From Acidobacteriaceae bacterium (GTDB taxonomy: Bacteria; Acidobacteriota; Terriglobia; Terriglobales; Acidobacteriaceae): a stretch of 32,302 nucleotides of DNA. The DNA is taken from positions 2,193-34,494 of the forward strand of contig PLFY01000037.1 of assembly GCA_003138365.1 (NCBI GenBank). The letters are read 5' to 3'. Position numbers and translations under genes: made by a program. The notes under the pieces were generated by a model, which saw nothing but the letters and a program-made list of their open reading frames with translations, ran no database searches and had not been told where the DNA came from. Below are positions 4,167-28,485 of the stretch, in pieces; position 1 is the stretch's first letter, and every line of letters starts with the position of its first letter.

Positions 4167-4275
4167 AGGTTCTCCGAGGAAGTGAGGGGTCCGAACTTGA
4201 CCTGCATTCTACCCCCACATTCCCATCCCCCGCTAGCCTTCTATCTCGCGACCTGTACCCTGTTCCCTGCGAGCA

Positions 4276-4320: not shown

Positions 4321-5229
4321 TCACGGTCGGCCCCTGACCCCTGATCCCTCATCTCTGTTCCCTGCTTCCAGCACCGCCACCGCCATGCGATTCAACGGCG
4401 TCGCAATCCCGTGCTTCTCTCCCAGCCGCACAATCACGCCATTCCGCGCGTCCGTCTCCATCCGCCGTCCCGCCATCCTGTCCGCCAGCAGAGAATTCAC
4501 CGAATCCCTTGGCTGCCCCCGATACATATCCAGCACCTGCTGCCCCACGCTGTCGTCCAACCTCGCGCCTTCCGCCCGTCCCACCGCCACGCATTCGGCT
4601 ACCATCTCCAGCGCCAACCGTCCCAGCGCCTCATCGTGCAACACCCCAGCCGGCTTCATCGTCAGCGCGTTGATCGCCCCCGCCGCGTTGGTGCATAGCT
4701 TCCGCCACGCAGCCGTCTTGAAGTCCCCCACCAGCTCAATCTCCACCTTGCTTCCCCTGAACAGCTCCTTGAATTCCGCTCCCAGCGGCCCCTCTTCCAC
4801 CTTCATCGTCACCTTCCCGCGCTGCACCACCGTGCCATCCGCCTGCCGTTCCACCGGGCAATCGATCACCACCGGCACAATCCGTTCCTCCTCTACATAC
4901 GGTGCAAGCCGCTCCCGATGTTCCACTCCGTTCTGCACCACCGCCACCACGGCCCCGTCCTTCGCCAGACCCCGCAGCCACTCCCCCGCACCAGCCGCGT
5001 CATAGGTCTTCGTCGCCACCAGCACCCAATCCACCGCACCGGCCTGTTTCGGATCGGTCAGATTCCGCGCCTTCACGGTCACCGCACCCTCCGGCGTCTT
5101 GACCGTCAGTGGCTCCACTGCCCGCCGCGTACACAGCGTGATCTCATGCAATCCCGTCGTCTCCAGCAGCGCCGCCAGCACCCCTCCAATCGCCCCCACC
5201 CCCACCACAGCCACTCGCGCCATCTCCAC
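4321..5229 (-). CDS. 2-dehydropantoate 2-reductase family (PanE/ApbA-like)
   Basis: Rossmann VAVVGVGAIGGVLAALLE; VKARNLTDPKQAGAVDWVLVATKTYD; WRKLCTNAAGAINALT; typical PanE C-terminal domain. Start could also be the ATG at 5223. Confidence 0.85.
   Translation of the reverse strand: MEMARVAVVGVGAIGGVLAALLETTGLHEITLCTRRAVEPLTVKTPEGAVTVKARNLTDPKQAGAVDWVLVATKTYDAAGAGEWLRGLAKDGAVVAVVQNGVEHRERLAPYVEEERIVPVVIDCPVERQADGTVVQRGKVTMKVEEGPLGAEFKELFRGSKVEIELVGDFKTAAWRKLCTNAAGAINALTMKPAGVLHDEALGRLALEMVAECVAVGRAEGARLDDSVGQQVLDMYRGQPRDSVNSLLADRMAGRRMETDARNGVIVRLGEKHGIATPLNRMAVAVLEAGNRDEGSGVRGRP
4331..4365 (+). repeat. Heptanucleotide tandem array, 5 degenerate units
   Basis: cccctga cccctga tccctca tctctgt tccctgc in exact 7-bp phase. 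A more decayed run sits at 4250-4270 (gacctgt accctgt tccctgc). Confidence 0.8.
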
Positions 5230-5332
5230 CCCTCCCGGTTTCCGTTACCACTCAAAAATACACGCACGACCCACTCATTCCGGTCCCTGTTTGCTTATCC
5301 CCATTCTCCGTCTGCACTAAACTGAATACGTC

Positions 5333-17112: not shown

Positions 17113-18099
17113 ATGGCAGCCAAGACTCAACCGATCATCGTCATCAAGAAGAAGAGTGGCCACGGCGGCCACCACGGTGGCGCATGGAAGGTTGCCTACG
17201 CCGACTTCGTCACCGCCATGATGTCGCTGTTCATCGTGCTTTGGCTCATGGGCTCAAGCGAGAAGGTGAAGAGGGCGGTCGCCGGCTACTTCAACGATCC
17301 CAAGGGAATCGCAAGCCAGCTCGGAACCACCATGACGGGGACCGGCTCAACCGTGTCCCAGGTAAGCACCGACGAGCTGCAGAAGCTGAAAGACAAACTC
17401 GAGCAGGAGATCAAGGCGAGAAAAGAGCTGGAGAAGCTCTCCAAGCAGATTGAGATTACGATCACGCCCGAGGGGCTGCGCATTGAGCTCATCGAGGGCA
17501 AGGACGGAACATTCTACGAGATCGGCAGCCCGAAACTCAGTTCAAGCGGTCAGGAACTGCTTGCGCTGTTGGCCACGGAGTTGAAGACCTTGCCCAATTC
17601 GCTGTTGATCGAAGGCCACACCGACTCCACTCCCTATTCGGATGACGCCGGCTACAGCAACTGGGACCTTTCGGCTGACCGCGCCAACTCCGCAAGGCGG
17701 CTGCTCCAGCAAGACGGTGTGCGCACCGATCAGGTAACTCAGGTGCGCGGGTACGCCGACCAGATGCTGCGCGTCAAGAACAACCCAACCGACCCCTCCA
17801 ATCGGAGAATCTCGATCCTGGTAAAGAACGACAACGAGGCAGTGCCGACAATCTCCGCAGCCAAAATCGTGGATGGAACCACTCCGCTGCCAGGTGCTCA
17901 AAAGCAATCCACCCCGGCAGAGGACAAAGGGAAGGCGCAAGGCGCCCAGCCCACCACGGAACCCGGCGCAAAACCGGCGGCTCAGGCTCCTGCGGAGACT
18001 CAGGCCCAGGCTCAAACCAAGCCTTCGCCGGCAACTCCGGCAGCCAAGCCCAGCTTGATAGATAAGCTCAAGAGCATGATCCCAGGCAAGAAAACGTAG
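17113..18099 (+). CDS. motB: Flagellar motor protein MotB (OmpA-like peptidoglycan-binding C-terminus, Ala/Pro/Gln-rich tail)
   Basis: IVIKKKSGHGGHHGGAWKVAYADFVTAMMSLFIVLWLMGSS (plug/TM with conserved Asp), LLIEGHTDSTPYSDDAGYSNWDLSADRANSARRLL OmpA motif. Confidence 0.93.
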   Translation: MAAKTQPIIVIKKKSGHGGHHGGAWKVAYADFVTAMMSLFIVLWLMGSSEKVKRAVAGYFNDPKGIASQLGTTMTGTGSTVSQVSTDELQKLKDKLEQEIKARKELEKLSKQIEITITPEGLRIELIEGKDGTFYEIGSPKLSSSGQELLALLATELKTLPNSLLIEGHTDSTPYSDDAGYSNWDLSADRANSARRLLQQDGVRTDQVTQVRGYADQMLRVKNNPTDPSNRRISILVKNDNEAVPTISAAKIVDGTTPLPGAQKQSTPAEDKGKAQGAQPTTEPGAKPAAQAPAETQAQAQTKPSPATPAAKPSLIDKLKSMIPGKKT

Positions 18100-18123: not shown

Positions 18124-18172
18124 TCCCTATTCCCTGATCCCTGATCCCTATTCCCTGATCCCTGATCCCTGA
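18124..18172 (+). repeat. Heptanucleotide tandem array, 7 units, with 21-bp higher-order periodicity
   Basis: tccctat tccctga tccctga tccctat tccctga tccctga tccctga: 49 bp in exact 7-bp phase; first 42 bp = (TCCCTATTCCCTGATCCCTGA)x2. Confidence 0.95.
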
Positions 18173-18227
18173 AATGGTGTACTCTGGTTTGCGTGCGGGA
18201 AAGCGTTTACTTAGAGGTGCTTATTCC

Positions 18228-19835
18228 ATGACCATCGTCGCCGGTGTTGACTTCGGCACACTCAGCGTTCGCGTGACTCTTGTCGACAGCCAAAAAGGCC
18301 CGATCGGAACCGCGTCGGCCTCTTACCCGCTGCACCGCCGCCGCGAAGACCCGAATTTTGCTACTCAGTCCCATGCCGACCAGATGGCCGCTCTGGCTGC
18401 CGCAACTCGCGACGCGCTTCTGGCCACCGGCGTCGATGGCAGCGCAGTCGCGGCCATTGCGCTCGATACAACCGGTTCAAGTGTGATTCCCGTCGGTAAG
18501 AGCCCCGAAACGGAACTTGCCCCGCTGGACGAGTATTACCTCTGGTGCGATCATCGCGCTCACGCCGAAGCCGAAGAGATCACCGCCAAGGCCCACGCCA
18601 CCGGCCTCGAAGCAATTGATTGGTGTGGCGGGGTCTACTCCTCCGAGTGGGGATTTTCCAAGCTGCTCCATTGGCTGCGCCACAATCCTGACAAGCGCTC
18701 CCGCTTTGTCACTGCGCTCGAGCATTGCGACATGGTGGCAGCCACGCTCTGCGGCATCAAGACCGTCGCCGAGTTGAAACGCAGCGTCTGCGCCATGGGC
18801 CACAAGTGGATGTGGAATCCCAAGTGGGACGGGCTGCCGCCGGAGGAGTTTCTGGTCGCAGTCGACCCGCTCTTCGCCGGTGTGCGCGCCAAGATGGGCG
18901 GCGAATATCTGACCAGCGATCATCTGGCCGGCCATCTTTCTCCTCAGTGGGCCGAGGCGCTGGGTCTGCGCGCCGGAATTCCCATTCCCGTTGGCGCATT
19001 CGACGCCCATTGGGACGCCATCGGCTCCAACATCCGCGAAGGCGACGTGGTCAACGTCGTCGGCACTTCAACCTGCATCATCGCCATGGCGCGTGAGGCG
19101 CAACTGGTTCCCGGCGTCTGCGGCGTGGTGCCGGGCAGCGTGCATCCGGACTATACCGGCATCGAGGCGGGCCTCTCGGCCACAGGTGACATCTTCGATG
19201 CCGTGGCCCGCCGCGCCAATACCAGCGTGGCCGCGCTCTCTGAAGGCCTGGACGCCTACAAGGCCGGGCAAACCGGCCTGCTGCGCCTGAGCTGGGACAA
19301 CGGAGACCGCACCGTGCTCGTCAATCCCGAACTGGGCGGCGTCACGCTGGGCTGGAACCTCGTCAACACCGCACAGGATGAGCTTTTCGCAGCCATTGAG
19401 GGCACTGCCTTCCACACCCGCATCATCCTCGAGCGCATGGCCGAATACGGTGTTCGCGTGGACCGCGTCATCAACGCCGGCGGCATTCCGCAGAAGAGCG
19501 AAGTGCTCAACCAGGTCTACGCCAACGTACTGAACAAGCCGGTGCTGGTGCCAGCGGGCATTCCCACCAGCCTGGGCTCAGGCATCTTTGCACTGCTCGC
19601 CGCCGGCGCGTACAAGACCATTGAGGAGGCGCAGGCAGCGGTCTGCCTGCCCTTGCGCACGGTCCAGCCCGATCCCAAGGCCGCCGCGGTCTACGAACAG
19701 CTCTACCGGCATTATCGCGATGTGTATTTTGCCCTCGGCCGCCGCGATGCGGAACCGCACCCAGAGGGTACCCGGCTGGGTCGTGTCTTGCCGGAACTTA
19801 GAAAGATTGCTGCGCAGGCGCGAAAGACTGATTGA
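18228..19835 (+). CDS. araB: FGGY-family carbohydrate kinase, ribulokinase (AraB)-like
   Basis: MTIVAGVDFGTLSVRVTLVDSQKG, ALDTTGSSVIPV, DEYYLWCDHRAHAEAEEI, VVNVVGTSTCIIAMA, RVDRVINAGGIPQKSEVLNQVYANVL, GSGIFALLAAG. ATG at 18228 preferred over the ORF start at 18174. Confidence 0.85.
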   Translation: MTIVAGVDFGTLSVRVTLVDSQKGPIGTASASYPLHRRREDPNFATQSHADQMAALAAATRDALLATGVDGSAVAAIALDTTGSSVIPVGKSPETELAPLDEYYLWCDHRAHAEAEEITAKAHATGLEAIDWCGGVYSSEWGFSKLLHWLRHNPDKRSRFVTALEHCDMVAATLCGIKTVAELKRSVCAMGHKWMWNPKWDGLPPEEFLVAVDPLFAGVRAKMGGEYLTSDHLAGHLSPQWAEALGLRAGIPIPVGAFDAHWDAIGSNIREGDVVNVVGTSTCIIAMAREAQLVPGVCGVVPGSVHPDYTGIEAGLSATGDIFDAVARRANTSVAALSEGLDAYKAGQTGLLRLSWDNGDRTVLVNPELGGVTLGWNLVNTAQDELFAAIEGTAFHTRIILERMAEYGVRVDRVINAGGIPQKSEVLNQVYANVLNKPVLVPAGIPTSLGSGIFALLAAGAYKTIEEAQAAVCLPLRTVQPDPKAAAVYEQLYRHYRDVYFALGRRDAEPHPEGTRLGRVLPELRKIAAQARKTD

Positions 19836-19867
19836 GGCTGAGGTCCCTGGAGACAGGGCATGATGTT

Positions 19868-19920
19868 GTGGCATCCCACACTAGCCGCAAAAACAAAGAC
19901 GCGGCGAGGGTGGGGCACCC
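19868..19920. repeat. REP-like intergenic stem-loop element
   Basis: gtggcatCCCACACTAGCCGC-aaaaacaaagac-GCGGCGAGGGTGGGgcaccc: 14-bp arms (19875-19888 / 19901-19914) with 2 mismatches around a 12-nt A-rich loop, between convergent genes. Confidence 0.65.
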
Positions 19921-19943
19921 AGGCTGTCGAGGTGTTGCTCTGT

Positions 19944-19964
19944 TCCCTGTTCCCTGTTCCCTAC
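19944..19964 (+). repeat. Heptanucleotide tandem array, 3 units
   Basis: tccctgt tccctgt tccctac, running into the stop codon of the minus-strand transglutaminase gene. Confidence 0.75.
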
Positions 19965-20950
19965 TGTTGTTGCTGCTGCATCTGCTGCAAGTCGATGAAC
20001 GGAATAGCGGGCGGATCAGGAGGCTGTTGGGCGCGCTCAACCAGCACGCTCCAGTCTTCGGGGATGGGAAGCTGGCGGTCCAGCGCCGGCGGCTGTTCAC
20101 CGGCTTCGACGTGTACGGCAACATACAGTTCGCTATCGGTCTTGCCGCGGAAGATGCCGTGTGTGGGAGGCACATCGGCGTAATCGCGGCCCACCGCCGT
20201 TCTAATGTGTCTATGGTGGGCCACAAGATTGTTGGTCGGATCGAAACCAACCCAGCCCAGATGAGGCATGAGCGCGTCGACCCAGGCATGGGTAGCATCC
20301 GGCGTGGAGCGGTCGTGGTCCTCGCGGCTCCGGTAGAGATAGCCGGAAACGTAGCGAGCCGGAATCCGCACATGGCGCAACAAGGCGATCATGGTGTGGG
20401 CAAAATCCTGGCAGACGCCCTCGCCGCTGATGATGGCCTCGTCGATCGGCGAGTCCACGCGCGTTGACCGGGGCACATACTTGAAGTAGTCGAACAAGCG
20501 CTGGTTCAGCTCCTGCACCAGCATCAGCGGATCGTCGCGGCGGGTAACGCCCATCTGAGCAGCAAGCAGCTTGACCGCAGGCGTCTCCACGGCAAAAGTG
20601 CTGGGCAGCAGCATCTCCCAGTAATCGCCGGCCTCGATCAAGTCGTCCAGCGCGCCCCACGCATCGGGCGACAAAAAAGCGGGCACGTCGGGCAGCACCT
20701 GTTGCTCCACAACCGACTCGGCCACAATGACGAGCTGGTTGTGCTCGTTGGGAATATCGAAATGCTGCACCGTGTTGCCCTGATGGTCGCGATAGCTGAA
20801 CACGCGGCAACGCGGACTTACCGAAAGCGAGAACGTGAGGCAGTGCTGATTCAAGTCCGAACGCGGGTGCATGCGCGTCTCCATGATGCTCTCGCTGATG
20901 GGCTGCGAATAGCGGAAGCGCGTAAGGTGCCGGATGGAATAAAAATTCAT
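19961..20950 (-). CDS. Transglutaminase-like cysteine peptidase-fold protein (bacterial TGase N-terminal + core)
   Basis: MNFYSIRHLTRFRYSQPISESIMETRMHPRSD; catalytic triad region GEGVCQDFAHTMIALLRHVRIPARYVSGY...DATHAWVDALMPHLGWVGFDPTNN. Start MNFYS at 20950 preferred over 21001. Confidence 0.9.
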   Translation of the reverse strand: MNFYSIRHLTRFRYSQPISESIMETRMHPRSDLNQHCLTFSLSVSPRCRVFSYRDHQGNTVQHFDIPNEHNQLVIVAESVVEQQVLPDVPAFLSPDAWGALDDLIEAGDYWEMLLPSTFAVETPAVKLLAAQMGVTRRDDPLMLVQELNQRLFDYFKYVPRSTRVDSPIDEAIISGEGVCQDFAHTMIALLRHVRIPARYVSGYLYRSREDHDRSTPDATHAWVDALMPHLGWVGFDPTNNLVAHHRHIRTAVGRDYADVPPTHGIFRGKTDSELYVAVHVEAGEQPPALDRQLPIPEDWSVLVERAQQPPDPPAIPFIDLQQMQQQQQ

Positions 20951-28471: not shown

Positions 28472-28485
28472 TCCCTGCTCCCTGC
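28472..28485 (+). repeat. Heptanucleotide repeat, 2 units
   Basis: tccctgc tccctgc just upstream of the CocE/NonD hydrolase gene; same orientation as the other arrays. Confidence 0.5.

What the first reader, a model, noticed from the sequence alone, without database searches (positions are those of the whole stretch)
18124..18172. Heptanucleotide tandem array (TCCCTRW) with 21-bp higher-order structure between motB and araB; one of at least four intergenic arrays in the window
Seven exact-phase 7-mers occupy the motB-araB gap, and the first 42 bp is a perfect duplicated 21-mer. Related in-phase arrays occur at 4331-4365, 4250-4270, 19944-19964 and 28472-28485, with a possible eroded one at 5284-5311 (tccctgt ttgctta tccccat tctccgt). 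All lie at gene ends or in gaps, and all read CCCTG on the + strand regardless of flanking gene direction. This resembles the cyanobacterial short tandemly repeated repetitive (STRR) heptamers in concept but has a different sequence. The shared orientation hints at a strand- or replichore-linked process, or insertion as a family, rather than a transcription terminator.
Basis: partly seen in the sequence, partly recalled or inferred. Interest (0 to 1): 0.72.

Follow-up and report, generated by a model that had tools for sequence, protein, structure and literature searches.

The report
Polar seven-base repeats at gene edges
The tandem seven-base repeat before the araB-like gene is one of very many in this soil Acidobacterium; they sit at the very edges of genes, nearly always point into the gene, and belong to a repeat class already described in cyanobacteria and Xanthomonas, but relatives here show that their sequence is rewritten while their place and their pairing partner are kept.

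Summary
The array is real: seven in-phase heptamers at 18124-18172, with a perfect 21-bp duplication. The window lies in an Acidobacteriaceae MAG with 81/97 such runs genome-wide (control 9/11). De novo, period 7 (with multiples) is the only enriched period, 28 of 31 noncoding. The rule is polarity: the C-rich strand reads into, and abuts, the nearer gene (38:4 in this genome), usually 1-9 nt from the stop codon. Two arrays facing each other across a gap are inverted. This geometry is published for the Xanthomonas and Nostoc G-rich heptamers (Rehm 2015, PMC4692102). New here: (1) the class in Acidobacteria, with several unit types, about half not G4-capable; (2) in close relatives the sites stay while the unit type changes, in both arms together, around a homologous middle; (3) in one complete relative orientation is replichore-linked. 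Reverse transcriptase and Y1 transposase do not track the arrays. Best reading: slippage-driven STRR-type arrays anchored between gene boundary and terminator or promoter, with paired arms kept complementary by fold-back copying or by selection. The motB-araB array is a single arm abutting the conserved araB promoter block.

The parts
18124..18172 (+). seven in-phase heptamers TCCCTRW, C-rich strand on +, pointing to araB
18124..18165 (+). perfect 21-bp duplication inside the array (TCCCTATTCCCTGATCCCTGA x2)
   Evidence: TRF period 21, 100%; string check
18174..18227 (+). block conserved in about 35 relatives directly 3' of the array: -10-like TGGTGTACTCTGG, LacI-type GGAAAGCGTTTAC, SD; araB promoter/leader (promoter function inferred)
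   Evidence: orthologous gaps
17113..18099 (+). motB-like gene (MotB_plug, OmpA), upstream neighbour
18228..19835 (+). araB-like FGGY carbohydrate kinase, downstream neighbour
19940..19963 (+). second array CTGTTCCCTGTTCCCTGTTCCCTA; its last CTA is the stop codon (TAG) of the minus-strand transglutaminase-like gene 19961-20950
4331..4365 (+). array forming the last about 13 codons of the minus-strand ApbA/PanE ORF 4321-5214 (the Pfam domain ends at residue 284 of 297)
4250..4270 (+). degenerate short run CTGTACCCTGTTCCCTG in the same gene-3' gap
   Evidence: sequence; below the strict threshold
28472..28485 (+). two-unit array just upstream of the SD of the S15-peptidase gene called from 28528; relative G177 has a longer array at the same place

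Best explanation
It is a polar heptanucleotide tandem array of the short-tandemly-repeated-repetitive (STRR) / G-rich-heptamer class. Shown: a strict 7-nt period with a CTR core; noncoding; the C-rich strand runs into and abuts a constrained gene boundary (stop codon, SD or promoter); two arrays facing each other across a gap are inverted; sites are conserved between species while units turn over; both arms of a pair change together. Inferred: units are gained, lost and homogenised by replication slippage; in paired sites one arm is rewritten from the other by fold-back (hairpin) template switching, or the pairing is selected in the RNA; purifying selection on the adjacent gene, promoter or terminator fixes where an array can end. 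The motB-araB array is a single arm that fills the spacer up to the araB promoter; no separate function has to be assumed for it.
For: Period 7 and multiples only, 28:3 noncoding:coding. CTG end to stop codon: 45 of 54 within 9 nt or overlapping; lead <=15 nt in 49 of 85 against 12.4 expected for random placement. Polarity with strand set by C>G alone 147:49, 38:4 in this genome. Slippage signs: 21-mer duplication, stepwise unit gradient ATCT>ATCA>ACCA>ACAA in L130 3404-3518, and runs of about 15 identical units in G191. Site conservation: a relative has an array at 11 of 22 orthologous gaps where G000 has one, at 5 of 45 where it has none (p=0.0014). At motB-araB, G200 (L034) has ACTGACC/ACTGAAA units ending in the same CTGAAATGGTGTAC. 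Arms: 27 pairs, similarity 0.62 against 0.44+-0.06 when permuted within genome; within-species duplex -1.43 against -0.67 kcal/nt cross-species over 5 sites; middle and flanks homologous while both arms switch type.
Against: Drift plus slippage does not explain why the same small unit vocabulary (CCCTRWT, CACTGAY, CTGATAA, AGCTNNN) recurs at many sites and in cyanobacteria, nor the sporadic distribution (same genus 0 to 243 matches). Only about a quarter of array gaps show a clear opposite arm (19 of 77), so fold-back copying is not general. Polarity is not significant in the small cyanobacterial sample (13:11) and weak in G200/G201 (16:12, palindromic AGCT units blur strand). No strain-level data, so slippage was not seen directly.
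Confidence: 0.6

Rival explanations
1. RNA-level function at gene 3' ends: the array lies between stop codon and terminator, and with its inverted partner forms a long intercistronic hairpin (REP-like mRNA stabiliser or terminator extension, or an insulator against transcription entering the gene). Pairing, not sequence, is selected.
For: Compensatory switching of both arms; arrays lie between a conserved terminator hairpin and the stop in gap 5 of L113 in three species; T-runs at the trailing end 11 of 63 against 4.1% (p=5e-5); divergent gaps depleted, 3 of 85 (p=2e-4).
Against: Most arrays have no visible partner; the motB-araB array is single; G174 has arrays almost only on one strand per replichore, whichever gene end they meet. 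Fold-back DNA copying gives the same covariation.
Confidence: 0.25
2. G-quadruplex control element, as proposed for Xanthomonas/Nostoc heptamers: four GGG tracts with 4-nt loops fold on the G-rich strand.
For: The TCCCTRW array has seven GGG tracts on the minus strand; Rehm 2015 shows G4 folding for similar oligonucleotides (PMC4692102).
Against: Arrays of CACTGAY, which cannot form G4, obey the same placement and polarity (28:8; not-G4-capable 73:33 against G4-capable 74:16), and orthologous sites swap between G4-capable and incapable units.
Confidence: 0.08
3. Mobile or templated insertions: arrays written or inserted by a dedicated enzyme (telomerase-like RT such as DRT10, RAYT/Y1 transposase) at gene edges or break ends.
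For: Sporadic distribution; G-strand polarity away from the gene on both sides resembles telomere addition to two ends; DRT10 shows bacterial RTs can make short tandem repeats (PMC12632851).
Against: RVT_1 absent from array-rich G083, G008, G181, G174, G188, G187, G166 and present in array-free G021, G028; Y1_Tnp in all 32 genomes; array sites shared between species.
Confidence: 0.07
4. Phase-variable SSR switching araB expression by changing promoter spacing.
For: The array abuts the araB promoter block and covers the -35 position.
Against: Most arrays sit at stop codons; neighbours in the window are ordinary genes; many relatives have araB without any array.
Confidence: 0.03

Closest known systems
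G-rich heptamer repeats GGGAATC / GGGGAYT of Xanthomonas and Nostoc (Rehm 2015, PMC4692102)
   Same: 7-nt units, dispersed, about 90% intergenic, G-strand runs away from the nearest ORF whichever way the ORF points, hugging the stop codon, depleted between divergent ORFs, inverted pairs, sites conserved between sister species (83%)
   Different: unit sequences differ (GGGAACA, GGGATCA, GGGAATA); about half of the arrays here cannot form G4; unit type switches at conserved sites; replichore-linked orientation in one relative, whereas Rehm saw no leading/lagging preference
Cyanobacterial STRR heptamers (Mazel 1990, recalled; STRR fingerprinting papers)
   Same: tandem heptanucleotides dispersed in noncoding DNA; one array here contains (AGTCCCC)3, the GGGGACT unit
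   Different: most units here are TCCCTRW or CACTGAY; different phylum
TAACTGA direct repeats of Beggiatoaceae, cyanobacteria, Bacteroidetes (MacGregor 2015, PMC4679880)
   Same: 7-nt, intergenic, CTGA core, close to gene boundaries; the identical unit occurs in G000 (L116 8898: CTGATAACTGATAA)
   Different: there mostly before start codons and unit fixed; here mostly after stop codons and unit variable
REP/BIME elements
   Same: intergenic, inverted pairs, between stop codon and next gene
   Different: no fixed palindrome; heptamer arrays; Y1 transposase not informative

Membership tests
STRR / polar G-rich heptamer class (by geometry) | tandem 7-nt units, many dispersed copies, period specific | tested here: met
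STRR / polar G-rich heptamer class (by geometry) | noncoding location | tested here: met
   28 of 31 in 82%-coding DNA
STRR / polar G-rich heptamer class (by geometry) | G-strand reads away from the nearest ORF; convergent pairs | tested here: met
   38:4 in G000; arms of the 27 pairs match in inverted, not direct, orientation (0.62 against 0.03)
GGGNATC family of Rehm 2015 (by sequence) | unit GGGAATC or GGGGAYT | tested here: not met
   units are GGGATCA/GGGAACA/GGGAATA; one exception, (AGTCCCC)3 in L116
GGGNATC family of Rehm 2015 (by sequence) | G4 folding | not testable with these tools
   needs CD or G4-seq; non-G4 arrays follow the same rule
TAACTGA repeats (MacGregor 2015) | repeated TAACTGA unit | tested here: not met
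   the finding's units are TCCCTRW; TAACTGA occurs only in another array (L116 8898)
Intrinsic terminator | array itself is hairpin plus T-run | tested here: not met
   by its sequence the C-rich array cannot pair with itself, and there is no partner arm upstream; terminators lie next to some other arrays
REP/RAYT system | Y1 transposase tracks the repeat | tested here: not met
   PF01797 in all 32 genomes, array-rich or not
Telomerase-like RT product (DRT10) | RT present in array-rich genomes | tested here: not met
Known structured RNA (Rfam) | match at gathering score | tested here: not met
   no match in the window

The most novel reading that the evidence does not exclude
One mechanism, shared across phyla, actively rewrites heptamers at gene edges: sites are ancestral, but an unknown trans-acting process (template switching from other arrays, or a dedicated polymerase) replaces the unit type in both arms in concert from a small common vocabulary, with polarity set by the gene boundary and, where strand asymmetry is extreme, by the replication fork.
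Probability: 0.15. Interest if true: 0.85.

Novelty: new variant of a known kind. Interest (0 to 1): 0.52.

Why it matters
Heptamer repeats have been described in separate phyla under separate names and explained by G-quadruplexes or unknown binding proteins. The Acidobacteria give pairs of close species in which the same site carries different units, so sequence-specific explanations (G4, one binding protein) can be separated from explanations based on pairing, period or mutation. They also supply a complete genome in which orientation follows the replichore, which makes a replication contribution testable.

Tried and rejected
RT/DRT10 and Y1/RAYT as agents: no tracking. Cassette insertion with array TIRs: rejected at the site where the middle is homologous although both arms differ. 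Hairpin as a general requirement: only 19 of 77 gaps. An array beside the only RT gene of G031 (L201) looked suggestive, but it points at the neighbouring gene as the rule predicts. Rfam: nothing. Literature on Acidobacteria with heptamers/STRR: none found in the held library.

Full report
Observation. The array at 18124-18172 is as described: seven 7-mers in one phase, the first 42 bp a perfect 21-mer duplication. In the window, 4 strict runs of two or more units occur against 0.07 expected. The window is part of a 4.78-Mb, 230-contig Acidobacteriaceae genome with 81 forward and 97 reverse 3-unit matches against 9 and 11 for the reversed pattern. One search also lists inverted pairs about 60-150 bp apart; in C146 the two arms are identical 27-mers including a variant unit.

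Broader family. A scan for any period in 372 kb of this genome (sampled around known arrays, so the density is biased towards them) found period 7 and its multiples, and almost nothing else from 4 to 30: 28 noncoding against 3 coding in 82%-coding DNA. Units include CTGATCC, CTGTTCC, CTATTCC, CTGATCT, CTGATCA, CTGACCA, CTGACAA, CTGATAA and AGTCCCC; relative G191 adds AGCTAAC, AACTCGC and octamers CTTCACCN. The shared element is a CTR core every 7 nt.

Placement rule. Reading the C-rich strand 5'->3', an array runs into the nearer gene and ends at its boundary: 45 of 54 stop-side arrays end within 9 nt of, or overlap, the stop codon; start-side arrays mostly leave about 9-30 nt or more, room for an SD. 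Lead distance <=15 nt in 49 of 85 against 12.4 by random placement (maximum 25 in 5000 trials). With strand set only by C>G the count is 147:49 over all genomes, 38:4 in G000, 42:14 in G191 and 27:5 in G174; weak in G200/G201 (16:12) and absent in a small cyanobacterial set (13:11). Divergent gaps are depleted, 3 of 85 (p=2e-4). Gene calls are from a simple coding-score caller written here, so starts are approximate. In the window all four arrays read '+', but each points into the gene on its right, whose strand varies: chance with four sites.

The motB-araB site. The neighbours are MotB and an FGGY kinase. About 35 relatives share a block TGGTGTACTCTGG...GGAAAGCGTTTAC...GAGG before the kinase start at 18228: a -10-like element, a LacI-type operator half and an SD (function inferred). 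The array ends about two bases before this block. In G200 (L034) the same place holds ACTGACC/ACTGAAA heptamers ending in the identical CTGAAATGGTGTAC; in G201 (L031) there is almost no spacer; most relatives have no array. The array is a single arm; no G-rich partner lies after motB.

Conserved sites, changing units. Three 20-kb stretches were compared with the close array-rich relatives G200 and G201. Where G000 has an array the relative has one in 11 of 22 comparisons, where it has none in 5 of 45 (p=0.0014). Unit types often differ: gap 4 of L113 is CACTGAY, AGCTAGA and CCCTGAY in three species. In gap 5 the array lies between a conserved terminator hairpin and the stop codon in all three. 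In gap 12 of L116 the flanks and middle of G201 and G200 align (middle score 71, shuffle maximum 30), while both arms have changed from CAGTGGT/ACTGACC to TAGCTTC/GCTGAAA (direction of change not known), keeping the CTR phase. Over 27 pairs, arms resemble each other more than permuted arms (0.62 against 0.44, sd 0.06). Over five sites, arms pair better within than across species (-1.43 against -0.67 kcal/nt; arms were cut out by eye from array positions, a possible bias). So the arms are coupled, by fold-back copying at the DNA level or by selection for pairing; these data do not separate the two.

Strand and replication. Single-contig relative G174 has an extreme GC skew (mean |skew| 0.22 over the sampled stretches); its 56 arrays are 36 '+' and 1 '-' left of about 2.05 Mb, 5 '+' and 14 '-' right of it, with the flipped cluster at 2.69-2.78 Mb and the lone left exception at 1.61 Mb in locally flipped skew. 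They still mostly abut the gene they point to. Its congener G158 has both orientations and inverted pairs. G000 shows no clear link (21:16). Orientation is therefore gene-edge-linked in general and replication-linked only in some genomes.

Agents tested. RVT_1 is missing from seven array-rich genomes and present in two array-free ones; Y1_Tnp is everywhere. No Rfam family matches the window. Distribution is sporadic: 61 of 200 family members have any match, and within the genus counts run from 0 to 243.

What is known. Rehm et al. 2015 (PMC4692102) describe for Xanthomonas and Nostoc heptamers the same proximity to the 5' ORF irrespective of ORF direction, the same stop-codon and divergent-gap bias, convergent pairs and 83% site conservation. 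MacGregor 2015 (PMC4679880) describes TAACTGA heptamers. Plasmids of Nostoc, Brasilonema, Gloeothece and Fischerella carry the same kinds of unit, 22 noncoding against 3 coding at period 7 in a set that also includes one Mycetohabitans plasmid. The finding therefore belongs by geometry to a known class, not to the sequence-defined GGGNATC family. New here, as far as the held literature shows, are the phylum, the breadth of units, the arm-coupled switching and the replichore locking in G174.

Mechanism. Shown: period, polarity, anchoring, site conservation, coupled arms. Inferred: slippage for unit turnover, fold-back copying or RNA pairing for arm coupling, and purifying selection on gene, promoter and terminator for the end points. 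G-quadruplex formation is unlikely to be the common function, because arrays unable to form one follow the same rule and stand in for G4-capable ones at orthologous sites.

Noticed in passing
window 19858-19922: REP-like hairpin element (GGCATCCCACACTAGCCGCAAAAACAAAGACGCGGCGAGGGTGGGGCACCC), repeated many times at about 82-92% identity in sister genomes, lying between the araB stop and the second heptamer array; also next to an array in L007.
   Followed up: partly
G174 (L213-L244): Unusually strong GC skew, -0.34 to +0.30 per 20 kb, with local flips near 1.60 and 2.68-2.78 Mb that look like inversions.
   Followed up: partly
window 18174-18227: Conserved promoter-like plus LacI-type operator block before the araB-like kinase across Acidobacteriaceae.
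   Followed up: partly
window 4321-4365: The ApbA/PanE ORF runs through a heptamer array for its last about 13 codons; the G-rich reading of CAGGG units has no stop codon, so arrays can extend ORFs.
   Followed up: partly
L138, L143, L137 (G191); L273 (G200): Octamer arrays CTTCACCN and CTNACTCG, some running in the same direction into heptamer arrays, so the period is not strictly 7.
   Followed up: no
L358 24007-24141 (Mycetohabitans rhizoxinica megaplasmid): Long (CTGATTA)n/(CTGATCA)n array directly followed by (TCGTCGG)n: the same heptamer types in a betaproteobacterium.
   Followed up: no
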